DNA of 64,000 nucleotides, taken from positions 1-64,000 of the forward strand of contig CANGNV010000003.1 of NCBI GenBank assembly GCA_947455485.1. Reading direction: 5' to 3'. Numbering within the stretch: position 1 is the stretch's first letter; every line of letters begins with the position of its first letter. Of this stretch, positions 8,201-33,885 are shown piece by piece. The DNA is from Burkholderiaceae bacterium (GTDB lineage Bacteria; Pseudomonadota; Gammaproteobacteria; Burkholderiales; Burkholderiaceae). The notes beneath the pieces are model-generated. The model worked only from the letters and a program-made list of their open reading frames with translations, did not search any database and was not told the DNA's origin. The position numbers and the translations under genes are program-made.

Positions 8201-8739
8201 ATATTGAAAGCGGTGCGCTAGCGATTGCCGCAAAAGAAAAAGAGCAGGCGCAAGCGGTAGAGCAACCCGATCCAGAGATTTTGGAAGAGGGAACGCATTT
8301 TCATAAATTGCTAGAGTTTTTAACTCCGCATTCAGGTAGTCAAACAACTGCCCTAATGCCAAGCGAGCAAGAGCTCATGAATTGGCTCAGTATCGATCAA
8401 GAGCGGGCCCAAAAACTGACAGAGCGCGTTCAGACTGTTATGAATGCAAAAGCGCTCCAAAAGTACCTCACTGAAAACCAGTGGGTTCAAGCTTGGAATG
8501 AGATCGACATCGCTGATGAGGACGGCAAGGGCTTCCGCTTAGATCGCCTAGTAGAGTTTGAGGACCATTTGGCCATCCTCGATTACAAGCTCACCATTCC
8601 AGAAGAGGGTGATGAGATGTATGAGAAGTACCGCAAGCAATTGAAGGGTTACCAGGATGAGTTGGGCCGCATTCGTAAAGATAAGCCCAATAAGGCCTTT
8701 TTAATCTCTGCAAACGGTGAGATTAAAGAAATTATTTAA
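5215..8739 (+). CDS. AddA/UvrD-like ATP-dependent exonuclease (helicase-nuclease)
   Basis: SACAGSGKTWLLVARM Walker A, ILIDEFQDTNPLQW, VGDPKQSIYRFRRADP, RVRLMTIHGAKGLEAP, VLYVAMTRAQ, C-terminal LAILDYKLT nuclease motif; GTG start at 5215 overlaps the upstream TGA. Confidence 0.92.
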   Translation: MSDKFDYAVACNPNNSVIVSACAGSGKTWLLVARMVRLLIAGAKPQEILALTFTRKAAQEMRDRLYGLLEQFSQMTDEKLIHELTIRGLNDAEANKLLPQARALYLKVLMSPQSIVIDTFHGWFGRLLGAAPISAEVQPGFSLREDAKRLQEECMQDWWGDLPADLKKHYDVLLKEFGAFETDKFLMGNYSLFKQRGAWTFFLASCKAKGISPAEALAQCLPNLSLPNPLEEFWRRPGTKEDLQVMLDCYSNGTPGQKKSAPFIQRVIALHAAGSSVMEVADQWQSYFLTKTLTPLKDIATMSVPMRDYLAATGGDPTQITSIRNAWVDAYEAWFPWKSDQDAYAINAAWFAMSEAMLGHMQKAKESMRVRDFDDLEIGVSQLMASSDNAAYLQARLDAKYSHILIDEFQDTNPLQWQILRSWLEGYGQDGSRPSVFIVGDPKQSIYRFRRADPRLFTSATTFLESTLQAKYLEKNTTRRNADAINKAVNSIFLTDAVPPTYVFAKQDTDWKAPLEGIAEQEFAAKGEAMLLPLIERTEQDQAERTGSALDNPIEDSGLTVGVQQRYWEGQQVSRLIHHVLATRQVIDKKDGKEYWRPARASDFILLVKRRAYLPQFERALREADLAYDSSRLGGLLNTLEIDDLIALLTVLVSPRHDLPLAQVLRSPIFSFTEQQMQELSSHVGDSQSESQGQAKSSWWDALQSSSVAEVQKAARYLERWRSLGEVLPVHDLLDLIYQESNLRISYAVASQNLARAQVLANLDAFLELALNQDGGRYPSLSRFIDEINAMRRGDDDETPDEGDVEAEADDDIGEVDLDSEMSEEDQHKRVRLMTIHGAKGLEAPFVIMLDANHTEWKAPHRGVLMDWSPDETGPSHLSLYAAKSLTEKRAAIYEKENEVSENENWNVLYVAMTRAQQGLWISGVQSHIKDGISQKSWYGRALAAGMETLDVTQLGELPTQEQEKVNSNSSEPFQINHFQLSWDAAKQSHQETIADIESGALAIAAKEKEQAQAVEQPDPEILEEGTHFHKLLEFLTPHSGSQTTALMPSEQELMNWLSIDQERAQKLTERVQTVMNAKALQKYLTENQWVQAWNEIDIADEDGKGFRLDRLVEFEDHLAILDYKLTIPEEGDEMYEKYRKQLKGYQDELGRIRKDKPNKAFLISANGEIKEII

Positions 8740-13991: not shown

Positions 13992-15491
13992 TTAACTTTC
14001 GGCAATATATTTAATAAAGTCGTACATCGCCAAAGTGTCTTGTGCGCAATAGTGTTTCAACTTGTTCTCCCAATCCAATTTCTCGGATGAAGAAATGTTC
14101 GGATCGGTGCATTTAAACCAGGCAATTTGTGCATCGCCACCACCACTTAATCCGTTTGAGCTCGAATAGTCGACTGTCGTAGGAATCGCCTTTACGATGT
14201 TCTTGAGAGAGTAAGACCCCATCATGACTGGTGAGTAAAAGCCATCACGTGCAATATCTAGAGTGTCAATAATGCGAGCAATCAAGGCCTCAACCGGGAC
14301 ATGAAGATCCGCACAAGTAGAGCGCTTTACTAAGGCACGAAGTTTAGAGCGTTCAAATGACGCGTTATGAACGAAGATGGGCCCATTTGTGCCAACTGCA
14401 CTCAAGAGGGTTTGAAGAAACTCGCGATCCATGTTGGGGTCATAAAACTTGAGATAGCCAAGACCATCATCAACATTGAGGATTTGATCGGCACTATCCC
14501 AGCGGTGAATTGACCATTGAAAAGGTAGGGCGTCATAGGCCTTCGTGCCAGCCAACAAAGGCACCCCTTGTTGTACAGTCTCAAAGTCCATGAAATAGCG
14601 AGGCCAAGTATAGGAGCATGCCTGAGACTTAAGATGCGGCGAGAGCCAAACCGTATTGGATTGATGCGCTGCCTGAATCATCAGGTGTTGAGGTTTTGTT
14701 AGGCTGGATGCGGGGATGTTGCGAAGATCATAAACGCCTTGTTTGGCAAAATCTTCGATGAGGTTCTTATTGGCATATGGAAGAATGGAGATAGGGACTT
14801 CAGCTAGCTTCTGAAGAAGAGCGCTGCAGCGTTCTTGATATGGGCAGTTATATGGCTCAGTGCATTGAGTGCCCATCGCAATGTCCGGCATGCTCGCGCC
14901 TAATGTAGCAATGGGCTTTAATTGGGCAATCCATTGAGGTACTTCATTCATGTTCTGGAGTACCTCTTTAGTGATGTCAGCTTCGGTGATGAGATTTTGA
15001 TAGTCCCCATTGCCCGAGTAGATAAAGTCTTTGTTGATGTGAGCAATTTGAATTTTATTTAGCGTGATCCCACAGGCTTTAGCGATATATGCTTGGACGG
15101 AAGCATCTTTTATATGTTCATTTTTCAGGCTGGTAGATGATTTCACTTCGATCATCTCCCAGGCATCAGAGTTTCGACGTAGTACATCAACACGTACTAA
15201 GGTGCCGTCATGCAGAAAAGCGGCTTCGTAAATAACCTGGATTAACGGATCATTGACTGCGGACTTTGTAGCGGCAATTGCTGATATCGCATCTAGATTG
15301 CCGGTTAAGTCGCAACCTTCCCCATAGTAGGTGCGTGCAAATTCGCCAAAGCGGTTGCCGATATAAAAAATATGTAACTCTTGCTTAATTGGTTCATTGG
15401 TGTCGAGCCAAAGCTTTTTATGGCACTGGAGCCCTGAGATAACCTTCGATTTGGTTAATACATAGAGCTTTGGCACGCTATTTGATTTCAT
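13992..15491 (-). CDS. DUF2779 domain protein: Cas4/RecB-like N-terminus plus DEDD exonuclease-like C-terminus
   Basis: TKSKVISGLQCHKKLWLDTNEP, VRVDVLRR...MIEVKSST nuclease motif, CTEPYNCPYQERC cysteines, RYFMDFETVQQGVP exonuclease motif. Confidence 0.85.
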   Translation of the reverse strand: MKSNSVPKLYVLTKSKVISGLQCHKKLWLDTNEPIKQELHIFYIGNRFGEFARTYYGEGCDLTGNLDAISAIAATKSAVNDPLIQVIYEAAFLHDGTLVRVDVLRRNSDAWEMIEVKSSTSLKNEHIKDASVQAYIAKACGITLNKIQIAHINKDFIYSGNGDYQNLITEADITKEVLQNMNEVPQWIAQLKPIATLGASMPDIAMGTQCTEPYNCPYQERCSALLQKLAEVPISILPYANKNLIEDFAKQGVYDLRNIPASSLTKPQHLMIQAAHQSNTVWLSPHLKSQACSYTWPRYFMDFETVQQGVPLLAGTKAYDALPFQWSIHRWDSADQILNVDDGLGYLKFYDPNMDREFLQTLLSAVGTNGPIFVHNASFERSKLRALVKRSTCADLHVPVEALIARIIDTLDIARDGFYSPVMMGSYSLKNIVKAIPTTVDYSSSNGLSGGGDAQIAWFKCTDPNISSSEKLDWENKLKHYCAQDTLAMYDFIKYIAES

Positions 15492-15538
15492 GGGTATATA
15501 TCCATTGGGGCTAAGGTAGATCTTATTAAATCAAAAAT

Positions 15539-15559
15539 AAATGATACTTTTTGTCATTA
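15539..15559. promoter_or_regulatory. Operator-like palindrome A
   Basis: AAATGAT-ACTTTTT-GTCATTA; same 7+7+7 architecture as two other sites, 48 nt before ATG 15608. Confidence 0.65.
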
Positions 15560-15607
15560 ATGCGGATTAGACTCTATAGTTACAAATATATGACGAGAAG
15601 AGGCCCC

Positions 15608-15871
15608 ATGTCTTTTAATGTAAATGATTGTGACTTGATTGTGATTGATGCAGCCGATACCGACTCTGGAATAGATGCTGAATATGCTTATATCAGTGAG
15701 CAGTTTGGTCCTTTTGGGGTTGGATGGCAATTGCAGCGTCAAAAGGTGTTAACGCATGTTTTGCCAGGGGAGGGCGATCAAATACAGGTGGATGTTCTCA
15801 CTATTGAGCTGGCAAATGGTGAGGTTAAGGATATCGCTTTTGATATCACCTCTTTTTATGGCAAATGGTGA
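15608..15871 (+). CDS. Hypothetical protein (87 aa), first gene of the WYL regulator unit
   Basis: MSFNVNDCDLIVIDAADTDSGIDAEYAYISEQFGPFGVGWQLQRQKVL...; no family recognised. Confidence 0.65.
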   Translation: MSFNVNDCDLIVIDAADTDSGIDAEYAYISEQFGPFGVGWQLQRQKVLTHVLPGEGDQIQVDVLTIELANGEVKDIAFDITSFYGKW

Positions 15872-15878
15872 TCGCGCA

Positions 15879-16619
15879 ATGATGCCTATTGAGTATTTAT
15901 ATGATCTTGGTCCTGTTCGTTGGGGTAACCCGAGCGAGAGTGCCTGCCTTTATTATCCAGGTGCCTATACCGATACTGGCCCGCTAGATTTGATTATGAG
16001 AAGTCGGTCTGAAAGTGCGAGTCAGCCATTTGATTCATTTGCCACGGCAATCTATGTAGATATCGCCATTACTCCTGAGGCAATAGAGCAGGTCATTCAT
16101 CGAATTAAGCATAACTATTCGACAAGAACAGTATTGGTGAGTGAAATATTGCCCGCTGACTTTGGGGCATTTAGATATGCTGATTTTTTGCCCAAGGAGG
16201 ACGATACTTTTTATGAGTCTGTGCCGAATTACGCACAGTTATACGCCGCAGAACATGATGAGTTTTTTGGTCTGCGTGCCTTTTTTCCTGAACTTCAATT
16301 AAATCTAATCTATCTCAAAGCAGAGGGAATTCAGGCGTACAGAACCCTTCAAAAAGCAAAGATCTTTCCTAATATTGTGGTCCTGCAAGATCATGGGCCT
16401 TGGGGTTATCAGTACGCCACTTTTTATGGCGAATGTCTTCTCTATAAGGCGGCAAAGAAATTGCCGCGATTCTTGTATCAAGCAACAGAGGGGGAGGCGT
16501 GGCCTGGTTACGAGCAGATCAGTGAAGGGTATTGCGATGAGGGCCAGGAGCATCGCTATGAGCGTTGTCTTAGTGCCAGAAAAACCGTTATTGCAGAAAT
16601 AAACAGAAGGAATAAGTAG
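15879..16619 (+). CDS. Hypothetical protein
   Basis: MMPIEYLYDLGPVRWGNPSESACLYYPGAYTDTGPLDL...; 8 nt after the previous stop (alternative ATG at 15858 would overlap it); 5 nt before the WYL gene. Confidence 0.7.
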   Translation: MMPIEYLYDLGPVRWGNPSESACLYYPGAYTDTGPLDLIMRSRSESASQPFDSFATAIYVDIAITPEAIEQVIHRIKHNYSTRTVLVSEILPADFGAFRYADFLPKEDDTFYESVPNYAQLYAAEHDEFFGLRAFFPELQLNLIYLKAEGIQAYRTLQKAKIFPNIVVLQDHGPWGYQYATFYGECLLYKAAKKLPRFLYQATEGEAWPGYEQISEGYCDEGQEHRYERCLSARKTVIAEINRRNK

Positions 16620-16624
16620 CGCAT

Positions 16625-17830
16625 ATGGCAAAGAAAAAGATAGCTGAGGATTTTGATTCTACTGATGAGGCTCTGGAAGAGAAAGGTGCATTGCGAGTAA
16701 TCCAGCGTCGTTGGGATGTTCTAAAAATGATTCCCCCTAATGGCCGCCTGATGAGTAAGAAAGAGGTTGCCGATCGCTTATATAAGCGCCATAGTGTTGG
16801 GCATAGTATTCAAGTATCACCAATGGCATTTTTGCGATATATCCAGCGAGATTTTGAGGCATTGAGCCGTGCAATTAATGCATTAAAGAAAGAGCAGATT
16901 ATTTCGACCCGGAAGGGTGTTTCTTGGGGTGAGGCTGGATCGCCATTTAAGTTAGCCGGCCTATCAAAAGACGAGATGATTGCGTTCGGTATGCTTAAAA
17001 AATTAGGCACATCTTGGATGCCTTCCTCTATCCGCGAGACATTAGAGCCATACTTCACGATGGCCATGGATGAGGCCAAGCAAAGGGTGATTGAGAATTC
17101 CGCCATTCCACCGCGACAGGCCGAGCTCCAGGCAAAGAAGTGGCTCGATAAGCTAGAGCGTCTTCCCGATTGGATTCAGTTTAAAAAAAGAAATATTGAT
17201 AAGAACGTCGAGAAAGTAATTCATGAGGCCTTGCTGCAAGAACAGAGTCTAGAGGTGGTCTATAAAGGCAAGCCAAGAGGTGTAATGTTTCCTCAGGCGC
17301 TAGTGCAAAGAGGCGCAAGAACTTATTTGCTTTCCACTTCGCCCAACGAACCAAGCTTGAGGCCTTACCTATTAAATAGGATGAATTCAGCCAGGATATC
17401 CCCGGAGCGCTTTAAGCTAACCCCGAAGGCTGATATTAAGGAGCAATTAAACCGGGGAATTGCTCAGCCAAAGTATTTGGAAGTTGACTATAAGGGTGAA
17501 TCGATTGCTTATGGTCAGCCAATTAAATTGCAATTTATAGCTGATGCGGGTACTGCGGATATATTGGAAGAGACTCCAATGGGGGATGATCAAGTAATTA
17601 CCCCCGTTGACTACTCATTAGTCACTCGCTGGAAGAAAGTGAAGGCGGATATTAAGTTAATTGATGAGTCTGAAAAAAATTGGGCAATCATTAGTGTCAC
17701 CGTGCTTTTGCAGGAAGAGTTGATATGGTGGTTACGTAGTCTTGGGCCATTCCTAAAGGTCATCGAGCCTGAATTTATAAGAGATCGAATTGAGTATGAC
17801 CTAAAGAGGGCTTTAGCGAACTACTCGTAA
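16625..17830 (+). CDS. WYL domain-containing transcriptional regulator
   Basis: N-terminal helix-turn-helix-like region (SPMAFLRYIQRDFEALSR), WYL-like core LEVVYKGKPRGVMFPQALVQRGARTYLLSTSPNEPSLRPYLLNRMNSA. Confidence 0.8.
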   Translation: MAKKKIAEDFDSTDEALEEKGALRVIQRRWDVLKMIPPNGRLMSKKEVADRLYKRHSVGHSIQVSPMAFLRYIQRDFEALSRAINALKKEQIISTRKGVSWGEAGSPFKLAGLSKDEMIAFGMLKKLGTSWMPSSIRETLEPYFTMAMDEAKQRVIENSAIPPRQAELQAKKWLDKLERLPDWIQFKKRNIDKNVEKVIHEALLQEQSLEVVYKGKPRGVMFPQALVQRGARTYLLSTSPNEPSLRPYLLNRMNSARISPERFKLTPKADIKEQLNRGIAQPKYLEVDYKGESIAYGQPIKLQFIADAGTADILEETPMGDDQVITPVDYSLVTRWKKVKADIKLIDESEKNWAIISVTVLLQEELIWWLRSLGPFLKVIEPEFIRDRIEYDLKRALANYS

Positions 17831-17859
17831 TCCATCCTCTTTAATTTACCGCCTCTCAC

Positions 17860-17905
17860 GAGCGCAAAGATATTTGTATTTTGAGTGTCTTTGCGCTCTT
17901 TCCCT
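17860..17905 (+). terminator. Terminator of the WYL unit
   Basis: GAGCGCAAAGA...TCTTTGCGCTC, perfect 11-bp arms, followed by T-rich tract. Confidence 0.8.
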
Positions 17906-17957
17906 TTTTATCTCTCCAACCCCATATTTATGGGGGTTAAATATATTGAGAAAGTTA

Positions 17958-17988
17958 TTTATAAATGACAAATAATGTCATTTATAAA
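17958..17988. promoter_or_regulatory. Operator-like palindrome B
   Basis: TTTATAAATGAC-AAATAAT-GTCATTTATAAA, perfect 12-bp arms; 21-bp core 17963-17983 ends 48 nt before ATG 18032. Confidence 0.75.
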
Positions 17989-18031
17989 TGGCAGTATTAA
18001 ACCTATCCCAATCAAACGGAAGGGTCTTCTC

Positions 18032-18184
18032 ATGAAAATGTTCCAAGCAACAGTCCGCCTAGGCGGCGGTAGTGTATTGCAAACATTGGAGGTTATGGCG
18101 ACAACTGCAATTGAAGCTAAAAACAATCTAGAGATGGAGTTTGGCGATGGAAATGTAGTGTATTTCCCCAAAGAAATTAGGTGA
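18032..18184 (+). CDS. Small hypothetical protein (50 aa)
   Basis: MKMFQATVRLGGGSVLQTLEVMATTAIEAKNNLEMEFGDGNVVYFPKEIR; directly upstream of the AAA+ ATPase gene. Confidence 0.65.
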   Translation: MKMFQATVRLGGGSVLQTLEVMATTAIEAKNNLEMEFGDGNVVYFPKEIR

Positions 18185-18204
18185 GTGTGTTGTGTGTAGC
18201 ACCT

Positions 18205-18229
18205 CTTCTCAGAATCGCTTTCTGGGAAG
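18205..18229 (+). promoter_or_regulatory. Hairpin between the 50-aa ORF and the AAA+ gene
   Basis: CTTCTCAGAA-TCGCT-TTCTGGGAAG, 10-bp stem with one wobble and no U-tract. Confidence 0.4.
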
Positions 18230-18263
18230 GGCTTTAAAAACCTAATAGACGAGGAAGTCAAAA

Positions 18264-20519
18264 ATGAATCTAGATCAACTATTAAATGCAAATGAACAGA
18301 ACTCAGAAGATCCGGGAGTGGTCGAAAAATTAACACCTGCTGAAAGCCTGGCTTTTCGTAAAGAGCGCCAGTTAAAGCTTAAAAAGGAAAAGTATCTCTC
18401 TATAGACCAAATACCTCAAGAGCAGCTAGAGGATGTAATAGATGCAGATGCTTCATACGCCCAGTGGTTGCGTGTAGTGTTGTTACGCACTCTTTTAAAT
18501 ACTAGTGCACTCAATAATCTAAAGTCATCTTATACATTTTGTAGTGCTAAGTTATACGGTTTTATGGGCTTCAGAAATTTTGAGGAATATTCAAAAAAGC
18601 GTGATTTGACAGAGTTGCGCGCTGATCTCTTGTTGATTTTGAGTGTATGGGAGTGTGAGCTTGGTGCTGGGTCCCGCTTCCCCAAAAATCTGACCCGTAA
18701 TTTAGAGGTCCTTGGAGAGATGGCCAACCTGACCCCTACAGAGCTGGAGGTATTGGGGCTAACAATCTTGATCCATAGCGAAGCAATTTTGCTCGAGTGT
18801 ACGGATTTGATTGGAGAGTCTGTGTCGGCATTTTCGGTTGCCAAGATCTATGCACCTATGCTGGGTGTGAAAAGTGCGCAGTTGGAATCGGTGTTCGATG
18901 AGCACTCCACTCTGAGTCGAACCGGCTTGATTTCACTGGATCATCGTGGTGAGGGCAATATTCGTTCGCGCGTCGATTTAATTACTTGGACATTTGCCAA
19001 GCGGGCGGTGATGTATCAACACAATGCTCGTGACTTAATTAAGGCATATGTGCGGCCGGTTAATGACGGTGATTTGCAAATGGTTGATTTTGATCACATT
19101 AAAGAGCGTGCCCAAGCAGTAAAGGCCTATTTGCAAGATGTCGTTGAGCAAGGCAAGTCCGGAGTCAATATCTTGATTTACGGTCGCCCAGGTACAGGTA
19201 AAACCGAATTTTCAAAGCTTATGAGCAAGGAGCTTGGTTGCGAATTGATGGAGGTTGCTGCAACTAATGTCGCGGGAAACCCTGTTACTCCTATGCGCCG
19301 CTTACGCAGTTATCGTGCAGCGCAATCCCTTTTTCAGAAGGGTAGTACCGTTATCTTGTTCGATGAATGTGAGGAGGTATTGACGGGTCGTTCGCGTCCG
19401 TTGGCAGATGATGAGGCAACCATGGCGCAAAAATCATGGATAAATCTGACTCTGGAAAGTAATGCATTGCCAGCAATCTGGGTGGCTAATTCAATTGACT
19501 CCTTTGACCAGGCTTATATTCGCCGTTTTGATATGTGTTTTGAGATGCCTAATCCCGATGAGGCTCAGCGTCGCAATATGTTAACCAAGATGTGCGGGGA
19601 AGTTTTGGGGCAGCAAATTATTGGCGATATTGCTAAAAATAAAAATACATCTCCCGCCCTGGTGGTGAAGACTGCTCAGGTAGTGAAGGCCTTGGCAGAT
19701 AACAAAACTGTAGCTGAGCGCAACGAGTTGGCATTGATGTTGGTGAACGATAAATTGCAAGCGCAGGGCGCTACTCAGGTTCAAACCTTTGACTCCGGAT
19801 CGCTTGGTTTGGGTTTTAAGCCTGACATGGTTAATTCCACAGTCAATATTCAGAATTTGCTTGATGGTGTAGCGCAAACCCGTGAAGCGCGAATCTGTGC
19901 CTGGGGGCCTCCTGGCACAGGGAAAACCGCTTTTGGTAAGTGGATGGCAGATCAGCTTGGTATTGCTCATATGGTATTGAAGGCCTCTGACTTATTGGGG
20001 TCACATGTGGGTGAAACGGAGCAAAAAATTGCTGGTGCATTTGCGGCGGCAAAACATCAGAAAGCGCTATTACAGTTTGATGAGGTTGATACCTTTCTCA
20101 TTGCCCGCACAAACGCAAAGCAAAGCTGGGAAATTAGCATGGTGAATGAAATGCTGACCCAAATGGAGTGCTTTAAAGGTGTCTTTATTGCATCCACCAA
20201 CTTGTTCGATAACTTGGATGAGGCGGCACTACGTCGTTTCGATATCAGCCTAAAGTTCGACTTTATGAAGCAAGAGCAGGCATGGGAGATGTTTATTGCT
20301 ACTTGCGAAACATTGCAATTACCAATTGGCGGTGTAGAGGTGAAGTCTCGCTTTCACGAATTACGCAACCTCACGCCTGGAGACTTCGAGCAGCTCGGTC
20401 GTCAAAGTCGTTTTCTCAAGCTCCAATCTGCGAATGATGCCCTTGAGGTGTTGGGTAAAGCGGTTGGCGTTAAAAAGTCCTGCCATTCACGCCAAATTGG
20501 ATTCCTAGCGGCCGCCTAG
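18264..20519 (+). CDS. Double AAA+ domain ATPase
   Basis: Two Walker A motifs (GRPGTGKTEF, GPPGTGKTAFGK), two Walker B motifs (VILFDECEE, LLQFDEVDTF), RRFD arginine-finger-like motifs in both halves. Confidence 0.92.
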   Translation: MNLDQLLNANEQNSEDPGVVEKLTPAESLAFRKERQLKLKKEKYLSIDQIPQEQLEDVIDADASYAQWLRVVLLRTLLNTSALNNLKSSYTFCSAKLYGFMGFRNFEEYSKKRDLTELRADLLLILSVWECELGAGSRFPKNLTRNLEVLGEMANLTPTELEVLGLTILIHSEAILLECTDLIGESVSAFSVAKIYAPMLGVKSAQLESVFDEHSTLSRTGLISLDHRGEGNIRSRVDLITWTFAKRAVMYQHNARDLIKAYVRPVNDGDLQMVDFDHIKERAQAVKAYLQDVVEQGKSGVNILIYGRPGTGKTEFSKLMSKELGCELMEVAATNVAGNPVTPMRRLRSYRAAQSLFQKGSTVILFDECEEVLTGRSRPLADDEATMAQKSWINLTLESNALPAIWVANSIDSFDQAYIRRFDMCFEMPNPDEAQRRNMLTKMCGEVLGQQIIGDIAKNKNTSPALVVKTAQVVKALADNKTVAERNELALMLVNDKLQAQGATQVQTFDSGSLGLGFKPDMVNSTVNIQNLLDGVAQTREARICAWGPPGTGKTAFGKWMADQLGIAHMVLKASDLLGSHVGETEQKIAGAFAAAKHQKALLQFDEVDTFLIARTNAKQSWEISMVNEMLTQMECFKGVFIASTNLFDNLDEAALRRFDISLKFDFMKQEQAWEMFIATCETLQLPIGGVEVKSRFHELRNLTPGDFEQLGRQSRFLKLQSANDALEVLGKAVGVKKSCHSRQIGFLAAA

Positions 20520-20564
20520 GCAGTAGACCACCTTTAGAGGGTGCTAGCTATATTTTTCAGAAGA

Positions 20565-20597
20565 AATCCTAAATGACAAATATCGTCATTTAGGATT
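20565..20597. promoter_or_regulatory. Operator-like palindrome C
   Basis: AATCCTAAATGAC-AAATATC-GTCATTTAGGATT, perfect 13-bp arms; core 20571-20591 ends 46 nt before ATG 20638. Confidence 0.75.
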
Positions 20598-20637
20598 GAT
20601 ATCCTGATGACTCAGTAAATCAAAAAGGTAAATAAAG

Positions 20638-21132
20638 ATGAAAAATCGTAAATACAATTTTGGCAAGTTATTGGCGCAAGCACAGCAGGGGCAACTCGAG
20701 GTTAAAGAGTTAAAGAAAGTCATTAAGGCAGCTCAAGACTTCGGCTTTACGGTAATTGCTGGTCAATTTCAAATGTATGTATATCAGCCGGCCAATATTG
20801 CGCCAGATCACGCACCTGCAGAGGTATTGGCCCGAGTTGCCCAGGGCATCAGTTACCTCAATGCTCATCGCATCCCCCTAACGCGCACTAAGCAAATGCT
20901 TAAACGTCACGGCGTCATCGAAACCATTCATCGCATCACATCGGATGCTATACCTAGTAAAAACCTGGAAATCCTTGCTAGTTCTAACCATCTGTATTTG
21001 TCTGCCGAAGCAATTGTGCTGGATCACCCAGAACTCTTTTCAGAGAAGGTGGTCAGCCTCGCAAAAATCAAGCTGGCAAAGGTCGATGGACACCCCAATT
21101 CTTCCTGTGGCCCATTCTTGTTGGCGGCTTAA
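20638..21132 (+). CDS. Hypothetical protein (164 aa)
   Basis: MKNRKYNFGKLLAQAQQGQLEVKELKKVIKAAQDFG...; no family recognised. Confidence 0.75.
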   Translation: MKNRKYNFGKLLAQAQQGQLEVKELKKVIKAAQDFGFTVIAGQFQMYVYQPANIAPDHAPAEVLARVAQGISYLNAHRIPLTRTKQMLKRHGVIETIHRITSDAIPSKNLEILASSNHLYLSAEAIVLDHPELFSEKVVSLAKIKLAKVDGHPNSSCGPFLLAA

Positions 21133-21171
21133 AACACTCATTAACAATCATTCTCTACAGGAGCTCGCCTT

Positions 21172-21309
21172 ATGAATTCAATCTATCAACAAACCATCGA
21201 TGCCATTCTTCATTTAAGTGCCGAAATATTTTTGGATGCTAATTCAGGTGCCGGTGATGCAATCCAGTCTACGGTTTTATGTGCAACTTCTTCTGGTATG
21301 GAGGCCTAA
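21172..21309 (+). CDS. Small 45-aa hypothetical protein
   Basis: MNSIYQQTIDAILHLSAEIFLDANSGAGDAIQSTVLCATSSGMEA*, with AGGAG upstream; stop abuts the next start; not in the ORF track. Confidence 0.5.
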   Translation: MNSIYQQTIDAILHLSAEIFLDANSGAGDAIQSTVLCATSSGMEA

Positions 21310-21684
21310 GTGAGTAAGCAAGCCTGCGCATCAATTGCATTAACTAAGACCTTATTGAATAAGGCTCTAGTAATCTCACTGTCGCTCACTTTCTCTACAT
21401 CTATTTTTGCCACTACTGAAGATCCACACCAACAATTTTCGGTGAATAAAAATAACACCAATAAATCAACCATTACTTGGCGTCCGGTTGTCGATGTTCA
21501 GGCTGAGTGCGAAAAGGAAAGTAAACGCTTGGGATATGGTGGGTTTGGCTATTCCGTAGAGGCGTGCTCCTTCTGGGACAAGAGCCCTTTAAGCAACGTT
21601 TGCACAATCATCACAGCCAAAACTGTCAATTTTCATACCGTGGGGCATGAGATTCGCCATTGCTTTCAAGGCAACTTCCACTAA
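21310..21684 (+). CDS. Small predicted secreted protein with HEIRH (HExxH) metalloprotease-like motif
   Basis: GTG start; hydrophobic N-terminus ending SIFA; C-terminus TVNFHTVGHEIRHCFQGNFH. Confidence 0.7.
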   Translation: MSKQACASIALTKTLLNKALVISLSLTFSTSIFATTEDPHQQFSVNKNNTNKSTITWRPVVDVQAECEKESKRLGYGGFGYSVEACSFWDKSPLSNVCTIITAKTVNFHTVGHEIRHCFQGNFH

Positions 21685-21707
21685 ATTCACAAATAAGAAA
21701 GTCTCAC

Positions 21708-22265
21708 ATGAAGACATTAGCATTCCCCATCATCCTGGCTGTATTACTTAGTGCCTGTAGCAGCGTTGATCCCTATACGAAGCGTGCAAACCAAGAGCGC
21801 GAGATGCAGGAGCGCTATGTGGAGCGAGCAATTAGTAATGCACCACCTTGGATGTTTAAAGTACCCAGTAGTAATTCAGCCATCTATGAGAGTGGGACGG
21901 GTGTAAGTGGAGACTTCTCAATGGCTGAGGTAAAAGCTAAAACAGATGCTTATGCCAAGATTTGCATGATGTTGGGCGGAGCTGTTAGCCAAAAGACAAA
22001 AATCTACCGGACAGATTCCGAGGTAAGCAGTACCGAGTTAAGTGAAATGGCTATGAAGGCAGGGTGCAAGGAGGTTGATTTAACGGGGATTGAGGTGCGT
22101 GATATCAAGCGCACTTCTGAAGGCGGACGTTTTCGTACCTATGTCCTGGTAGCAATGCCAACTGGAGACGCCAATATTTTGCGCAAAGCCAAAGAAGCGC
22201 ATCAGCAAAAGGAGTTGGCAATGCAACGAGCGCCTGAGGCGTTTAAAGAGCTTGATAAGCCATAA
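21708..22265 (+). CDS. Putative lipoprotein (LPP20-like)
   Basis: MKTLAFPIILAVLLSACSSV lipobox; PPWMFKVPSSNSAIYESGTGVSGDFSMAEVKAKTDAYAKIC. Confidence 0.75.
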   Translation: MKTLAFPIILAVLLSACSSVDPYTKRANQEREMQERYVERAISNAPPWMFKVPSSNSAIYESGTGVSGDFSMAEVKAKTDAYAKICMMLGGAVSQKTKIYRTDSEVSSTELSEMAMKAGCKEVDLTGIEVRDIKRTSEGGRFRTYVLVAMPTGDANILRKAKEAHQQKELAMQRAPEAFKELDKP

Positions 22266-22267
22266 GT

Positions 22268-22543
22268 ATGAATAAGTATTGCTATCGCTTCGCATGCTTG
22301 GTGGCATCTGGAGTGCTTCTTGGATGTGACAGTCCTCCGTCACCAATGTTAAGTTATGACGAGTTAAAGCGTTTCCCAGCACAATGCACAAAGGCCGATC
22401 AGCAACTGAGGCAGCTTCATGCGATCTTGGAAGCGAAGAATTTTGATAGTGATCCAGACAAGCTGAATGATGATGATCGCGCATATAACCGTCGCTTAAA
22501 ATCTACGATTTGGTGGTTTGCCTACGAGTGCGATCAATCATGA
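22268..22543 (+). CDS. Putative lipoprotein
   Basis: MNKYCYRFACLVASGVLLGCDSPPS lipobox; 2 nt after the upstream stop. Confidence 0.75.
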   Translation: MNKYCYRFACLVASGVLLGCDSPPSPMLSYDELKRFPAQCTKADQQLRQLHAILEAKNFDSDPDKLNDDDRAYNRRLKSTIWWFAYECDQS

Positions 22544-23085
22544 GTCACAGATTAGCTGCGCTACTCATATTGGGGTCGGTGTGCTGTCATTCGGTAATGG
22601 CGGGTTGTGATGTTCGATCGGCTAGCCAGCTTGTCAATGAGCGCGAAGTGGGGTCAGTATTGGATTTGGAGAAATTCAAATCCACAGGAAAGTGTTTGGT
22701 CAGATACCGACTAGTAATTGATGGAATATCCCATAATCTTGAGGCTGAGGAGCTTGGTCTCGAGCAAGAAGATTCCTTATGCTATTACGCCATTGAAAAG
22801 GCGAGGAAAGAATTGCTAGTAAGCCTGGGCGGAAAGTTCCAAACTCAGGCAGTTACGGTATGCAGCGATCAAGCGCCCCCAAGATCAAAGGTTTTGATTG
22901 GTGATGTTGTTTTGGAGAATGAGCTTGCACAAGTGAAGGATCGAAAGTACTTCACCTATCGGAACTCAAAATGCAGGCTATTCGTAGAGCGCCGAGAGTT
23001 AAACCGTAAGCTAGTCGTTAATCATGGGGTAATCTGTCAGCTTGACGATATCAGTGAGAGCTGGCTTGTTGTAGATAAGTGGTGA
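22540..23085 (+). CDS. Predicted secreted hypothetical protein
   Basis: ATGA overlap with upstream gene; MSHRLAALLILGSVCCHSVMAGC signal peptide. Confidence 0.65.
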   Translation: MSHRLAALLILGSVCCHSVMAGCDVRSASQLVNEREVGSVLDLEKFKSTGKCLVRYRLVIDGISHNLEAEELGLEQEDSLCYYAIEKARKELLVSLGGKFQTQAVTVCSDQAPPRSKVLIGDVVLENELAQVKDRKYFTYRNSKCRLFVERRELNRKLVVNHGVICQLDDISESWLVVDKW

Positions 23086-23158: not shown

Positions 23159-24349
23159 ATGATTACTTTTGCAGAATTTCAAACTCAAGCTCTGGCACGT
23201 GGTTACAAACCCAGAGCTGATAGTTGCAGACCTGAATTGTTCATTATCAATTCAAAAAATCGAGTGAAGGTAGAGATTAATACCAAGTCCAGAACCTACA
23301 TCGCTGGCTATAACATTTCGCCTGAAAACAGGCTTCTGTTAAAGCAAGCTCTCGCATCTTCAGACTTATTTCAAATGAATTTTCTTGGGCGCTCTCTTGC
23401 TTGTGCTCAATATGAGGGCCTGGAAAAGTTTTGGCGTTGGGTATCAATCATTGAGGCAGTTGAATTTATCGCTATAGAGCGGAAATCAGATTCAGTCAGT
23501 CAACCTATTACTGGCGATGCTATTCCGATGGTCAGCTTTCAAGAATTTGCCTCCCAGTGCCAGGCCCGTGGATATAAAGGAAGAATGCAATCAGATCGAC
23601 CTGAACTCTTTGTACTCAAAACTAAAAATGGCGTTAAGGTTCAGCTGAATACCAAGTTAAGAAACTATGGGGCTGGTTATGGCCTTGATGAAGAGGAGCG
23701 ACTTGCTTTGATGGCCGAGCTAACTCGACAGCAAGAGCTTGGAGTCTTTGAATTGATCACTTCCAATACCAAGTCGGCCTTTGCCAGGTATGAGGGAATG
23801 GAGAAGTTTTGGAAGTGGACTGAAATTATTGAGAACATCGACTCTATCGTTGCCTCAACGAGAGGGTTTGCTACAAAATTGTTCACAAGAGATCAGGCGG
23901 ATGAAAGAATTTTTGAAAAAATTGCCAGGACATACCAGTTTGCTATCCGACTAGAGCATCAAAATTTACTCGATACCTCAAGAATACTTTTGGAGGCCGA
24001 TAAATTGGATCATCTTATTACAGTGGGTAAGTCTGCCAATGCTCCAGAGGATAGGCCATACCGGGAGCACATTGTTCCTTGCGTGATGATTCACAATGAG
24101 GTGATTCGACTGCTGCTGGACGCAGGTGTTCGTGAACGCGAAGTGCCAGAGGAAGTAATTCATCAGATTGCAACGTTCATTAAAAATAATTTGGCAATTG
24201 TGCTGATTTGCAAAGAGGAGCAGGAAAAGCTTGATATCACTTTGGGCTTAAGAACATCTATGCCGAAAAATTGGAAATTTGGAGATAGCATATTCGCTCG
24301 ACTAGAGGCCGCAGAATTGGAATGGGAATCCTTTGACGAGGAATCCTGA
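23159..24349 (+). CDS. Protein with tandem duplicated domain of unknown function
   Basis: 396 aa; two homologous ~105-aa units sharing F.EF..Q..ARGYK.R..S.RPELF......VKV.(I/L)NTK.R.Y.AGY and A.YEG(L/M)EKFW(R/K)W. Confidence 0.8.
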   Translation: MITFAEFQTQALARGYKPRADSCRPELFIINSKNRVKVEINTKSRTYIAGYNISPENRLLLKQALASSDLFQMNFLGRSLACAQYEGLEKFWRWVSIIEAVEFIAIERKSDSVSQPITGDAIPMVSFQEFASQCQARGYKGRMQSDRPELFVLKTKNGVKVQLNTKLRNYGAGYGLDEEERLALMAELTRQQELGVFELITSNTKSAFARYEGMEKFWKWTEIIENIDSIVASTRGFATKLFTRDQADERIFEKIARTYQFAIRLEHQNLLDTSRILLEADKLDHLITVGKSANAPEDRPYREHIVPCVMIHNEVIRLLLDAGVREREVPEEVIHQIATFIKNNLAIVLICKEEQEKLDITLGLRTSMPKNWKFGDSIFARLEAAELEWESFDEES

Positions 24350-24426: not shown

Positions 24427-25134
24427 ATGCCGCTTATATTTAGCAACTTATATAAATTAGACGTTATTTGCGATGTTGGCATTACAGGCCCTTTCAACAC
24501 ATCGTGGACAAAATCGTATGTGGCAATTCCTTCCGGAAAGGCAACATCTACGAAGCCAGATGGTGTGGGCTCTGGCCTTAAAATCCGCCCATTAAAGCTC
24601 AAGCCCGGTATTGAGCTAGCTGGATACCAGAATTCCATTGCCGACCTAGTTCCTATGGCCAATTTAAATCATTTGATTTATCTGGTGGTTAGTACGCGTT
24701 ACCCAATGTTTTATGTCGGGGTAACGGAAGGAGGCCTGCGTTCAGGAATATTTGACACCGGGCGCTTAATTCATCACGCACGAAAAATGCTGGCAATTCG
24801 CGAGAGTAGCACCAGTCATACAGGCGGTTGGTTGACTCATGCTATGGAGCGTTACGATGCCAATCTGGCTGCGCATACATTACGCGTTAATGATCAAGAC
24901 TTTCTTCAGGACTTGCTAGGTGATGTTTATATTGCAGTTGGCCATCAAGGCCATGATGCCTGGACTCCTGCTAGTGTTGAGGATACGGTATTGAGTCAGG
25001 TAGAGACAAAATTAAATAGCGATGGAAGGGTGGTTCAAAAAATGAATACTGCAGGCTCTGGACGAGACCCAGTTGATATTGAGCTCCCGGACAATTTTGA
25101 TCGAATTATTCAGGAATCTATTGCGCGGGAATAG
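24427..25134 (+). CDS. Hypothetical protein with possible GIY-YIG-like core
   Basis: LIYLVVSTRYPMFYVGVTEGGLRSGIFDTGRLIHHARKML. Confidence 0.6.
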   Translation: MPLIFSNLYKLDVICDVGITGPFNTSWTKSYVAIPSGKATSTKPDGVGSGLKIRPLKLKPGIELAGYQNSIADLVPMANLNHLIYLVVSTRYPMFYVGVTEGGLRSGIFDTGRLIHHARKMLAIRESSTSHTGGWLTHAMERYDANLAAHTLRVNDQDFLQDLLGDVYIAVGHQGHDAWTPASVEDTVLSQVETKLNSDGRVVQKMNTAGSGRDPVDIELPDNFDRIIQESIARE

Positions 25135-25897: not shown

Positions 25898-26320
25898 CTA
25901 TTGTGCCTTGATGAGCGCCTCAACATCCTTAATTAAAGATGCCGTTAGGTCGCGTAGCTCGTCAATGGTTGACTCTTCAATCTCTAGGTAGCCCTCGTAC
26001 TCAGCCAAATTGCGTTTTTGATGAACTGCATCAAAAACTCGCCATTTATTAGCGGGCCAGCCTAGCGTGTCGCCGAGACATTGGAATACCATGAATCGAT
26101 TTTCGCTTCTATACCCATGCCAGCGTAGGGCAGCAAGTGCCGCACCATGAGCAGCATTGTAGGCAGACGTAAATCGACCCTCTATAGACACCTCTGCGAT
26201 CCCGGAGTCTAGTAAACGTCTGTGAGAAATCTCAAGCATCCTAAGTACTTCAATTTCTTCGGAAGGTTCAGATTTAAGTTGACCAATTTTGACCAAATTA
26301 TCTAAATTTTGATTAGTCAA
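25898..26320 (-). CDS. HEPN-like protein, partner of the adjacent nucleotidyltransferase
   Basis: FTSAYNAAHGAALAALRWHGYRSENR..., HQKRNLAEYEG; overlaps the MNT gene by 8 nt. Confidence 0.7.
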   Translation of the reverse strand: MTNQNLDNLVKIGQLKSEPSEEIEVLRMLEISHRRLLDSGIAEVSIEGRFTSAYNAAHGAALAALRWHGYRSENRFMVFQCLGDTLGWPANKWRVFDAVHQKRNLAEYEGYLEIEESTIDELRDLTASLIKDVEALIKAQ

Positions 26321-26888
26321 TTAAGGCGCCATACACTGAGATGGTAGGTAGTTCTAACACTTTATTTACAAATGAATTTCGCTCTGCGCGACGATTCTCA
26401 AACTCTTTTGGTGTGTAGCAGGTGGGATTAATTTTTCGTCCTAACTTATGTTCAACTGGGGTGAGTAGATCCAGTATTTTACTAAGACGTAAATTCTTTC
26501 CGACTAAAAGAAGGTCAATGTCACTACTTGCTGTATCGGTATTTTTGGCGACCGAACCGTAGATCAATGCGTGCTGTAAATCTTGATGCAATGGTAATAA
26601 AGCAACATTGATTTCGTGATCAATACCCAATGTCTTTTTTACAAGGCTATGAAGCTCTTTATAGATAGGTGAGCTTTGATTGGCTTTGCAAATTCTTAAG
26701 TTTCCAAGCTTTGTTGAGCTAATAATCCCGCTTTCCGAAAGTCGGTTTAACTCTCTCTGTAGTGATGCGCTACTTAACTTAGTCAGGCGCAATAATTCAC
26801 TTAAATGAAATTCTCGTTCAGGATGGCCAAAGACCCAGCCTAAGACTAGGCTTTGGCTGGGTGAAAAAAGAGCGCTTGATAGTGACAT
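26313..26888 (-). CDS. MNT-type nucleotidyltransferase with N-terminal winged HTH
   Basis: ALIYGSVAKNTDTASSDIDLLLVG (GS-X10-DxD); N-terminal HLSELLRLTKLSSASLQRELNRLSESGII. Confidence 0.85.
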   Translation of the reverse strand: MSLSSALFSPSQSLVLGWVFGHPEREFHLSELLRLTKLSSASLQRELNRLSESGIISSTKLGNLRICKANQSSPIYKELHSLVKKTLGIDHEINVALLPLHQDLQHALIYGSVAKNTDTASSDIDLLLVGKNLRLSKILDLLTPVEHKLGRKINPTCYTPKEFENRRAERNSFVNKVLELPTISVYGALID

Positions 26889-27084: not shown

Positions 27085-27552
27085 TTATTGATCTGGCTTA
27101 TGACCAGAGCATTCATTAGGCTCTAATTCCTTATCCCATAAATCATACTTAGATTGCATTACTATCCACAGCTGAGGCCCATTGCCTAAATAAGTGCCTA
27201 GCCTTAGCGCTAGTTTTGGTGTGATGCGGTATCTCTCAGACAGAACAGCATGCAGAGTTTGCTTTGAGACTCCAAGATGCTTGGCAAATGTAGCGGCAGA
27301 AATGCCCAATGCAGGTAAAACATCCTCTCGCAGGATAGTGCCAGGGTGGGTAGGCAATCGTTTACGCATACTTTTGGAAAGTGAGTTTCTTGCGTTGATT
27401 TTTTTCAGCGCATTTCGAAAATCTTTGAGATCTTCATAGCTGTGTGCTTCTGTAAGGCCGATAGATTTCCTCTGATCTAATTCTTTTGCTATTTCCCTTG
27501 CTCTTGCAAAAAAATCGTCAACATTTCTGAGTCTGACTATTGGTTTTCGCAT
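27085..27552 (-). CDS. HigA-family XRE antitoxin with extra N-terminal domain
   Basis: C-terminal LPTHPGTILREDVLPALGISAATFAKHLGVSKQTLHAVLSERYRITPKLALRLGTYLGNGPQLWI is a HigA signature; N-terminal VRLRNVDDFFARAREIAKELDQRKSI. Confidence 0.85.
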   Translation of the reverse strand: MRKPIVRLRNVDDFFARAREIAKELDQRKSIGLTEAHSYEDLKDFRNALKKINARNSLSKSMRKRLPTHPGTILREDVLPALGISAATFAKHLGVSKQTLHAVLSERYRITPKLALRLGTYLGNGPQLWIVMQSKYDLWDKELEPNECSGHKPDQ

Positions 27553-28053: not shown

Positions 28054-29037
28054 TCAATACAAACCCAGTGCTTTGGTTAATTCCGCCTTTACCCTTGTCT
28101 TAAGACTAGCCGGCCCAATTACCTCAACGCCTGATCCATGTTTCAGGATATCCATAACCAACTCGGGATCTTGGTTGTAATCAAACTCTAGGTTGTAATA
28201 ACCGTCTTTATCAAAGCTGCCCACTTGCTGGCCATGCCAATGCTCGCCTGACACCCATTTTGCATGCTCAGGAGTAAAGCGTAGCTTAGCTCTTTGTGTG
28301 GCTTTACCTGAGAAGATACCGTAGCTCTGTGCAAAGTGTTCCTGACATTCTTTTTCAGAAACTTCTTGAGCTTTCTTATTGGTAAGTACTGCACTCTGAA
28401 TACCATCTACAGAAAAACTCCTCAAACCATTGCGTAAGTGGCAATACGCATCGAGGTACCAGTTCTCGCGGTAATAGATTAATCGTTGAGGAGAGATTTC
28501 ACGAGCAGTGTTCTCGTCTTTACCCCTAGAGTGGTAGGTGATCTCTAGACGATTACGTTTGAGTAGGGCGGCACCAATTTCAGAGAAGTTCTCAATAGAG
28601 TTCTTACGTGAACCCATGCCGATTACTTTGATGCGTTTACGTAACTCTTTAGCTGTTGCTTCACTTTGACCAAGGATGCCATCAATGATGGCTGTAAGTG
28701 GCTCAATATGGGGTCCAATTAAACCGCCTTGATCGAGGGAGGAGAGTAAGTGCTGCATTAGTACTAAGGCAGTAGCCTCTTTCTCGGAGAACCAGAGGCC
28801 TGGCATCTCAATCCTCTCGATCGAGGAGGAATTCTCAAACTTATATCCACCCATGAAGCGGTCATAAACTATGGATGCCTGCATACGGCTACGCAGATAC
28901 TCTAGGTCACGCTTGAAGGTAGCGGGGGAGATCTCTAGCTCGGATAAGAAATCCTCCCTTGGAACGCATTTGCGTTGCTGAATCATGTACTTAATCCGGT
29001 GCAGACGCTCCATATCGCTCATATCAACCCAATCCAA
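28054..29037 (-). CDS. WYL domain-containing HTH transcriptional regulator
   Basis: RLHRIKYMIQQRKCVPREDFLSELEISPATFKRDLEYLRSRM HTH; LEITYHSRGKDENTAREISPQRLIYYRENWYLDAYCHLRNGLRSFSVDGIQSA WYL. Confidence 0.93.
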   Translation of the reverse strand: MDWVDMSDMERLHRIKYMIQQRKCVPREDFLSELEISPATFKRDLEYLRSRMQASIVYDRFMGGYKFENSSSIERIEMPGLWFSEKEATALVLMQHLLSSLDQGGLIGPHIEPLTAIIDGILGQSEATAKELRKRIKVIGMGSRKNSIENFSEIGAALLKRNRLEITYHSRGKDENTAREISPQRLIYYRENWYLDAYCHLRNGLRSFSVDGIQSAVLTNKKAQEVSEKECQEHFAQSYGIFSGKATQRAKLRFTPEHAKWVSGEHWHGQQVGSFDKDGYYNLEFDYNQDPELVMDILKHGSGVEVIGPASLKTRVKAELTKALGLY

Positions 29038-33700: not shown

Positions 33701-33885
33701 TTTATTGATATCTGGTCTAGCAATTCAGGAATTCTAGAAACTAATTCTGAAATGAGATAGCTGCGACTATTTTCTGCTGAAGGCAATTCAATGCTTGCTC
33801 GACCTTCTCGCTCCAATTCGTCAAGCTCCGGCAACTCACTTTCATAAATTAATCTATCGTATAGGCCATGCTTAAATTTTGACAT
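30748..33885 (-). CDS. DEAD/DEAH helicase with N-terminal PLD nuclease domain and C-terminal DUF3427
   Basis: RLHAKAWIF...GSANLS (PLD), VVAATGTGKTVVAAF, VIIDEAHHLPA, LLGLTATPERTDG, QQIGRGLRLS, C-terminal SGNGWKFFLFVRENN. Confidence 0.93.
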   Translation of the reverse strand: MSKFKHGLYDRLIYESELPELDELEREGRASIELPSAENSRSYLISELVSRIPELLDQISINKDGSDEKAKIELKLISEILKQARLLAKADQDTELLATPPQLLKSIHEPNLPGIFPITGLRSSWLFSSSKSEPALLSELISELQAVDSVDILVSFITWSGVRKIYDVLKSITSVNAQGKSKTKFRFITTTYIGATDARAVNSLAELPNVELKISLDGRRTRLHAKAWIFKRDTGFGTAYIGSANLSESALVSGIEWTIKIAQKTSGQVYQNAEAHFETLWNDAEFQTYDPYNESHREALNRALHEQKYLTTKSSPSEIIANQTWFELRPKFYQQGMLDRLQSERDQNRKKNLVVAATGTGKTVVAAFDYERVCRQEGGQPKLLFVAHRVQILKQAIYTFRQVLRDSSFGELMDGNNEPTQYEHLFATINTINTRNLIDKLGNDYWLMVIIDEAHHLPAQSFDKFATSIKPKILLGLTATPERTDGMSLGKYFDLRPDGSPSVSLRLWDALDQQLLAPFEYYATHDDIDLTSIDWRKSNIENQLDAIISSNNVRARSVYQAVERYSSSLDDLKSIGFCVSVKHAEFMADFFNKRNIPARSLTGAQSELERNIAIKELSSGNIKVIFTCDLFNEGVDIPEINTLLLLRPTQSPILFQQQIGRGLRLSIGKDCCLVLDFIGNYSEEFRFDILFRSLTGQTRLRIKEAVESGFSFLPPGCYIQFDKVARERVLDSLKKSLKLNSLRLTSELAAWASTKSREQITLNNFLIENQIEVSDIYNGKHYWNEYKLRCNLISHPIDVVDDKLSKRFGSLLYVDDRELLTCWREALSGKPIDLVRTQMLAYQLITSGTISPDQFITKLINQPYAKDELIELIDWQLNQSDKSYISLENAPASWPISLHCRYTRSDILTAVGFRDALKRPDFREGCLTLDGIKTELMFVTLDKSKGFNESVQYHDYAISPSLFHWQTQNKASLSNKTGRRYIESASGNGWKFFLFVRENNESAFLALGEAILQAYEGERPIQITWLLKQAMTAEIFRRLSIIRSA

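What the first reader, a model, noticed from the sequence alone, without database searches (positions are those of the whole stretch)
15608..23085. Candidate undescribed system: two unknown proteins, WYL regulator, 50-aa protein, double-AAA+ ATPase and a secreted/lipoprotein cassette
The gene order is compact and on one strand, with gaps of 0 to about 80 nt within units. A cytosolic remodelling ATPase is linked by shared operator-like sites to a set of envelope proteins, two of them lipoproteins and one carrying HExxH. WYL regulators are an established marker of phage-defence and stress islands. I recognise no named defence system with this combination, but I could not search.
Basis: inference. 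Interest (0 to 1): 0.8.

Follow-up and report, generated by a model that had tools for sequence, protein, structure and literature searches.

The report
WYL-controlled Cdc48-like ATPase–nuclease island
A freshwater bacterium carries a switchable gene cluster, probably aimed at foreign or damaged DNA, in which one control protein appears to govern a protein-unfolding motor, a two-headed DNA-cutting enzyme and some cell-surface proteins; the motor, nuclease and controller travel together in many unrelated bacteria and plasmids, but no catalogue searched here lists them as a system.

Summary
The window is a Polynucleobacter genome, in an integration hotspot beside umuDC. Three 21-23-bp palindromes (AAATGAC-N7-GTCATTT type) sit at the starts of all transcription units. 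They recur at the same three places in a relative with 83% identical ATPase; a more distant relative (56%) uses a different palindrome of the same geometry in matching places.

The missed gene is divergent at 13992-15491: a DUF2779 protein with invariant Cas4-type nuclease, four-cysteine and DEDD-exonuclease residues. Operator 1 lies in the shared intergenic region.

ATPase + WYL + DUF2779 recurs across alpha- and betaproteobacteria and plasmids (Burkholderiales co-occurrence odds ratio 10, p=3e-8; the DUF2779 link changes at least 8 times on the ATPase tree), often beside defence genes. The lipoprotein cassette is specific to Polynucleobacter; 15608/15879 were found only in the nearest relative.

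Best reading: an uncatalogued, WYL-switched anti-mobile-DNA module with a Cdc48-like unfoldase and a dual nuclease. Architecture and regulon are well supported by sequence; the defence function is inferred.

The parts
13992..15491 (-). DUF2779 protein, 499 aa: N-terminal Cas4/RecB-like PD-(D/E)XK nuclease (E89, D102, E115-V-K117, Q133) with four invariant Cys (C23, C210, C216, C222), C-terminal RNase H-fold DEDD-type exonuclease (D302-F-E304, D409, Y481-x3-D485)
   Evidence: Pfam DUF2779 4.7e-26; invariant residues in 15 homologues; AF2 model pLDDT 85, top PDB fold hits Cas4 (5e-4) and MGME1; DUF2779 placed in the RNase H-like 3'-5' exonuclease clade with a Cas4-like domain in PMC3985635
15538..15560 (.). 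operator 1 (AAATGATACTTTTTGTCATTA core), in the intergenic region between divergent DUF2779 and 15608-15879-WYL
   Evidence: identical core at the same position in 31A-FELB
15608..15871 (+). 87-aa protein of unknown function
   Evidence: no Pfam hit; 63% identical homologue in L047 only
15879..16619 (+). 246-aa protein of unknown function
   Evidence: no Pfam/NCBIfam hit; 73% homologue in L047 only; none in plasmids
16625..17830 (+). WYL regulator (predicted HTH-like N terminus, WYL, WCX), 401 aa
   Evidence: Pfam WYL/WCX; profile best matches in PDB are WYL regulators of the DriD/PafBC type
17860..17898 (+). terminator-like stem-loop ending the WYL unit
   Evidence: 17 pairs; the scan as a whole finds no more sites than shuffles
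17962..17984 (.). operator 2 (perfect palindrome) upstream of 50-aa protein and ATPase
18032..18184 (+). 50-aa protein, conserved in three Polynucleobacter loci
   Evidence: 88% in L047, 41% in L048
18264..20519 (+). tandem-AAA+ ATPase, 751 aa; helical N domain, D1 and D2 with intact Walker A/B and arginine fingers
   Evidence: Pfam AAA; invariant motifs in 56 homologues; AF2 pLDDT 86 with NVL/Rix7/Cdc48 as top folds
20570..20592 (.). operator 3 (perfect palindrome) upstream of 20638
20638..21132 (+). 164-aa protein of unknown function, follows the ATPase in three Polynucleobacter loci
   Evidence: 81% in L047, 48% in L048
21310..21684 (+). secreted 124-aa HExxH protein
   Evidence: HEIRH in sequence; homologue in L048 with HEVGH between 20638 and DUF2779
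21708..22265 (+). lipoprotein (LSAC lipobox)
   Evidence: 43% homologue upstream of the 50-aa/WYL genes in L048
22268..22543 (+). small lipoprotein (LLGC)
   Evidence: weak similarity to L048 279-aa lipoprotein, 1e-4
22540..23085 (+). secreted protein; not found in the compared loci

Best explanation
The locus is a WYL-switched accessory module that acts on foreign or damaged DNA. Its widespread core is three genes: WYL regulator, Cdc48/NVL-like tandem AAA+ ATPase, and DUF2779 protein (Cas4-like nuclease plus DEDD 3'-5' exonuclease). The WYL dimer binds the 21-23-bp palindromes at each unit and holds the regulon in check or activates it on a signal (inferred; single-stranded DNA is the best guess because its WYL profile matches DriD/PafBC-type structures best). 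When switched on, the AAA+ ring strips or unfolds nucleoprotein while the dual nuclease degrades the exposed DNA (inferred). In Polynucleobacter the same operators also precede 20638 and a variable envelope cassette, perhaps sensing or altering the cell surface (inferred). Shown here: gene content, catalytic motifs, conserved operators, recurrent linkage. Not shown: regulator binding, catalysis, defence.
For: Operators conserved at three positions in 31A-FELB and replaced by another palindrome of the same 7-N7-7 geometry (AAACGAT-N7-ATCGTTT) before the 50-aa/WYL, ATPase and 20638 genes of G061. DUF2779 near ATPase in 17 of the loci, at least 8 changes on starred branches. Burkholderiales: 16 genomes with both versus 3.9 expected, p=2.9e-8. 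WYL near ATPase in 36 of 76 loci against about two WYL genes per genome. Invariant active-site residues in both enzymes; model folds. Defence neighbours: type IV restriction and PDC-M05 pair in the window, PDC-M27 and DISARM drmD/methyltransferase, BREX genes, GmrSD. Hotspot: umuC-35785 distance 1.4-31 kb in 25 Polynucleobacter genomes, 22 kb here.
Against: Across the whole phylum sample ATPase/DUF2779 co-occurrence is not significant (5 genomes, p=0.07), so the trio is a subset of ATPase contexts. Nearness to defence genes can be passive island co-travel. No homologue with a tested function was found. In the window the DUF2779 gene is divergent, not co-transcribed with the WYL gene. The exonuclease motif-II acid is Glu (E380), absent in one homologue. 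L049 (47% ATPase) lacks the other core genes in the DNA held.
Confidence: 0.5

Rival explanations
1. A WYL-controlled DNA-damage/repair regulon, in the manner of Caulobacter DriD: ssDNA from broken forks activates it, the nuclease processes ends and the Cdc48-like ATPase clears proteins; phage defence is not its purpose.
For: WYL profile matches DriD/PafBC-type structures (1e-14 to 1e-10) better than CapW/BrxR (7e-6, 9e-4); DriD binds a 20-bp pseudo-palindrome and regulates an endonuclease and recJ (PMC12340889); umuDC lies next door.
Against: Sporadic distribution, plasmid carriage and repeated gain or loss beside defence systems are unusual for repair; umuC is near-universal in the genus and only marks the hotspot.
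Confidence: 0.2
2. No system: ATPase+WYL, DUF2779+WYL and the envelope genes are independent island cargo that cluster because they share integration hotspots.
For: The ATPase occurs in many contexts without DUF2779; DUF2779-WYL occurs without the ATPase; phylum-wide co-occurrence weak.
Against: Shared, conserved and co-diverged operators across the units; ATPase-DUF2779-WYL tandem on one strand with gaps of 10-63 nt between ATPase and DUF2779 in several lineages.
Confidence: 0.2
3. An envelope-stress system: the WYL/ATPase core controls a lipoprotein/HExxH cassette that senses or remodels the cell surface (for example receptor masking); the nuclease is incidental.
For: Envelope genes accompany the ATPase in Polynucleobacter loci, with 21310 and 21708 shared by window and G061 and a DUF4407 membrane protein and TPR lipoprotein in G061; operator 3 precedes the cassette.
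Against: Envelope genes absent from nearly all other ATPase loci (3/744 lipoprotein-like neighbours) and not the same set in 31A-FELB.
Confidence: 0.1

Closest known systems
BrxR/CapW WYL repressors of BREX and CBASS (PMC9122601, PMC9122588)
   Same: WYL regulator in a defence island; ~20-bp inverted repeats at promoters of the regulated genes; autoregulatory position
   Different: Sequence profile is nearer DriD/PafBC; spacer 7 rather than 5; associated with an ATPase-nuclease set, not BREX/CBASS
DriD / PafBC ssDNA-sensing WYL activators (PMC12340889)
   Same: WYL-WCX core is the best match among solved structures; palindrome length similar; targets include nucleases
   Different: Here the targets are local accessory genes, not a chromosomal repair regulon; ssDNA binding untested
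Cdc48/p97, NVL, Rix7, VAT (type II AAA+)
   Same: Two AAA domains with intact Walker and arginine-finger motifs; top fold and sequence matches
   Different: Own helical N domain of about 260 residues without a Pfam match; 16-20% identity; accessory bacterial gene
Cas4 / TM0106-family RecB-like nucleases (TIGR03491, DUF83 + RNase H-like)
   Same: Cas4-like PD-(D/E)XK with four Cys followed by RNase H-fold exonuclease; near full-length but sub-threshold match to TIGR03491 (35 versus 97 bits)
   Different: DUF2779 domain instead; no CRISPR genes seen nearby; paired with WYL
IetAS (PADLOC IetA)
   Same: AAA domain similarity (5e-33)
   Different: Single AAA in IetA (from memory), two here; no subtilisin-like IetS in the locus

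Membership tests
BrxR/CapW-type WYL regulator | wHTH-WYL-WCX architecture | tested here: inconclusive
   WYL and WCX found; HTH expected at residues 30-100 but no Pfam HTH hit; weak profile hits of that part to HTH repressors
BrxR/CapW-type WYL regulator | palindromic ~20-bp sites at promoters of the controlled genes and its own | tested here: met
   three sites in register in two genomes, changed palindrome with same geometry in a third; binding itself not tested
BrxR/CapW-type WYL regulator | closest sequence kin are BrxR/CapW | tested here: not met
   DriD/PafBC-type structures score far better
DriD/PafBC-type WYL activator | ssDNA bound by the WYL-WCX core | not testable with these tools
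   only family similarity seen
Type II AAA+ (Cdc48/NVL-like) | two AAA modules, Walker A/B and arginine fingers intact in both | tested here: met
   invariant G307-K313, D367-E368, R420-R421, G548-K554, D606-E607, R657-R658 in 56 sequences
Cas4-like nuclease | acid...D...ExK...Q motif plus four Cys | tested here: met
   E89, D102, E115-V-K117, Q133, C23, C210, C216, C222 invariant in 15; Cas4 top fold hits
DEDD 3'-5' exonuclease | DxE, second acid, third Asp, Y-x3-D | tested here: inconclusive
   D302, E304 and D409 invariant and Y481-x3-D485 nearly so, but the motif-II position is Glu (E380) and lost in L048
IetAS | single AAA IetA with adjacent subtilase IetS | tested here: not met
   two AAA domains; no subtilase among Pfam hits of the locus
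Any PADLOC 2.0 system | all components match one system's models | tested here: not met
   only generic WYL, AAA and weak Cas4 hits

The most novel reading that the evidence does not exclude
A new class of inducible anti-mobile-DNA system in which a WYL protein senses single-stranded DNA and switches on a bacterial Cdc48-type unfoldase coupled to a Cas4/DEDD double nuclease, with lineage-specific add-ons such as the Polynucleobacter envelope cassette.
Probability: 0.2. Interest if true: 0.8.

Novelty: new variant of a known kind. Interest (0 to 1): 0.58.

Why it matters
Cdc48-like tandem AAA+ unfoldases are best known from eukaryotes and archaea; here a distinct bacterial family, present in about 10% of sampled Pseudomonadota genomes, recurs with a WYL switch and a two-domain nuclease in defence neighbourhoods. 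If real it gives DUF2779 and this ATPase family a testable joint role and a natural set of operators for assaying what a WYL protein senses.

Tried and rejected
Known-system match: PADLOC hits were generic AAA (IetA, TRIP13), WYL and weak Cas4, so no named system. Chromosomal UvrD/PD-(D/E)XK pair at 2225-8739 as part of the module: rejected, only ~30% local similarity to the pairs seen beside other ATPase copies and outside the operator set. UmuDC as part: rejected, umuC is near-universal in the genus. Phage origin: the IMG/VR scan gave no relative; no DUF2779 in phage records; one unverified 'Bacteriophage sp.' record has ATPase+WYL. A general palindrome rule upstream of all ATPases: only slight excess and no preferred spacer, so the 7-N7-7 geometry is claimed only for Polynucleobacter. 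Papers: none describing ATPase+WYL+DUF2779 found in the open library.
Full report
WHAT WAS CHECKED. The window lies on contig C3 of a 1.65-Mb, 85%-complete genome; the nearest named relative is Polynucleobacter sp. 31A-FELB, whose ATPase is 83% identical. 15608, 15879, 20638, 21310, 21708 and 22268 have no Pfam match; 22540 has none that counts. The ATPase has two AAA domains; the WYL protein has WYL and WCX domains.

OPERATORS. Three palindromes fall at the three starts of transcription units: 15538-15560 (between divergent DUF2779 and 15608), 17962-17984 (before the 50-aa protein and ATPase) and 20570-20592 (before 20638). In the whole assembly only two matches to AAATGACN7GTCATTT are perfect, both here; at two mismatches the reversed-pattern control is as frequent, so the weaker 15538 site would not be convincing alone. 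It becomes convincing because the relative 31A-FELB has the identical core at the same place and near-perfect copies at the other two. In the more distant G061 the old sequence is gone, but a different palindrome, AAACGATN7ATCGTTT-like, stands before the 50-aa/WYL, ATPase and 20638 genes and once more before a 287-aa gene, where shuffles give about one such hit per locus. This is what co-evolution of a regulator (about 40% identical) with its sites would look like. A 17-pair stem-loop with a T tail follows the WYL gene. Binding by the WYL protein is inferred.

THE MISSED GENE. 13992-15491 on the minus strand encodes a DUF2779 protein. In 15 homologues the Cas4/RecB nuclease motif and four cysteines are invariant, as are DxE and D409 of a DEDD-type exonuclease, with Y481-x3-D485 nearly so. 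The model (pLDDT 85) finds Cas4 and MGME1 first and RNase T further down. PMC3985635 places DUF2779 in the 3'-5' exonuclease clade and notes its Cas4-like domain.

THE ATPASE. Walker A/B and arginine fingers of both rings are invariant in 56 homologues. The model (pLDDT 86) matches NVL, Rix7 and Cdc48, as does sequence. Homologues at E<=1e-40 occur in 42 of 399 sampled Pseudomonadota and 35 of 399 Burkholderiales genomes, sporadically, and on plasmids.

LINKAGE. A WYL gene is near the ATPase in 36 of 76 loci by profile, and annotated in a few more, while the genomes hold about two WYL genes each. DUF2779 is near in 17 loci including the window; in the Rhodoferax, Diaphorobacter and several Burkholderiales loci ATPase and DUF2779 are in tandem with WYL following. 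On the ATPase tree the association changes at least 8 times on starred branches. In the Burkholderiales sample 16 genomes hold both versus 3.9 expected (odds ratio 10, p=2.9e-8); in the phylum sample the excess is not significant (5 versus 2.3, p=0.07). Genomes are related, so these p-values are optimistic. Alpha-proteobacterial plasmids of Sphingobium and Azospirillum also carry ATPase, WYL and DUF2779 together.

WHICH GENES BELONG. In three Polynucleobacter loci (window, 31A-FELB, G061) the constant set is 50-aa, WYL, ATPase, 20638 and DUF2779. 15608/15879 are shared only with 31A-FELB. 21310 and 21708 are shared only with G061, in a different order; 22540 is window-only. 31A-FELB has other secreted proteins at that spot. 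A coarse lipobox scan gives 4/33 neighbours in the other Polynucleobacter loci and 3/744 elsewhere; the scan missed the LLGC lipobox of 22268, so it undercounts. So the envelope link looks real in this genus but is not part of the wider module.

SETTING. The locus sits between umuC and the gene at 35785. In 25 genomes of the genus that interval is 1.4-31 kb (median 3.2; 22 kb here): an integration hotspot. It also holds a type IV restriction enzyme and a candidate defence pair PDC-M05A/B. Elsewhere the ATPase stands beside PDC-M27, DISARM drmD with a methyltransferase, BREX genes or GmrSD-like genes.

MECHANISM AND LIMITS. The WYL profile is nearest to DriD/PafBC-type structures and weaker to CapW/BrxR; identification of the top chains as DriD is from my own knowledge. 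DriD is activated by ssDNA and binds a 20-bp pseudo-palindrome, whereas CapW and BrxR are repressors at similar sites. Hence the proposal of a DNA-triggered switch. Whether it represses or activates, what it senses, and whether the module defends, are not shown.

Noticed in passing
window 13558-35785: Interval between umuC and 35785 varies 1.4-31 kb across 25 Polynucleobacter genomes: a chromosomal integration hotspot.
   Followed up: yes
window 30748-34979: Type IV methyl-directed restriction enzyme (PADLOC 5.6e-192) with an adjacent HNH/PtuB-like protein on the minus strand.
   Followed up: partly
window 25898-26888: Pair matching candidate defence families PDC-M05A/B (1e-71, 9e-57; nucleotidyltransferase/HEPN-like by eye); a weaker homologous pair lies downstream in 31A-FELB.
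   Followed up: partly
window 28054-29037: Second WYL regulator, 85% identical to one 6.8 kb from the ATPase in G061 (L048 918-1886).
   Followed up: no
window 27085-27552: HigA-family antitoxin (NCBIfam 1.6e-26); no HigB toxin looked for.
   Followed up: no
window 23159-24349: Protein of unknown function with an internal duplication (83-nt repeat at 23229 and 23598, 71% identical), not found in the compared loci.
   Followed up: no
window 24427-25134: Unknown protein 67% identical to a longer one in 31A-FELB, with a GIY-YIG-like stretch by eye; the G061 locus has a LEM-3-like GIY-YIG hit after DUF2779.
   Followed up: partly
L131 7734-8669; L124 8018-8632; L015 10572-11567: The gene just upstream of the ATPase varies: FtsZ-like, RNase T-like exonuclease, FtsK-gamma-like; possibly a swapping slot.
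   Followed up: no
L101 (MT835507) 17392-19476: An unverified 'Bacteriophage sp.' faecal contig carries the ATPase with a WYL gene 85 nt downstream.
   Followed up: no
L142, L146, L147: Alpha-proteobacterial plasmids pair ATPase+WYL with AddAB-like PD-(D/E)XK + UvrD genes, two with an ADP-ribosylglycohydrolase: another recurring set.
   Followed up: no
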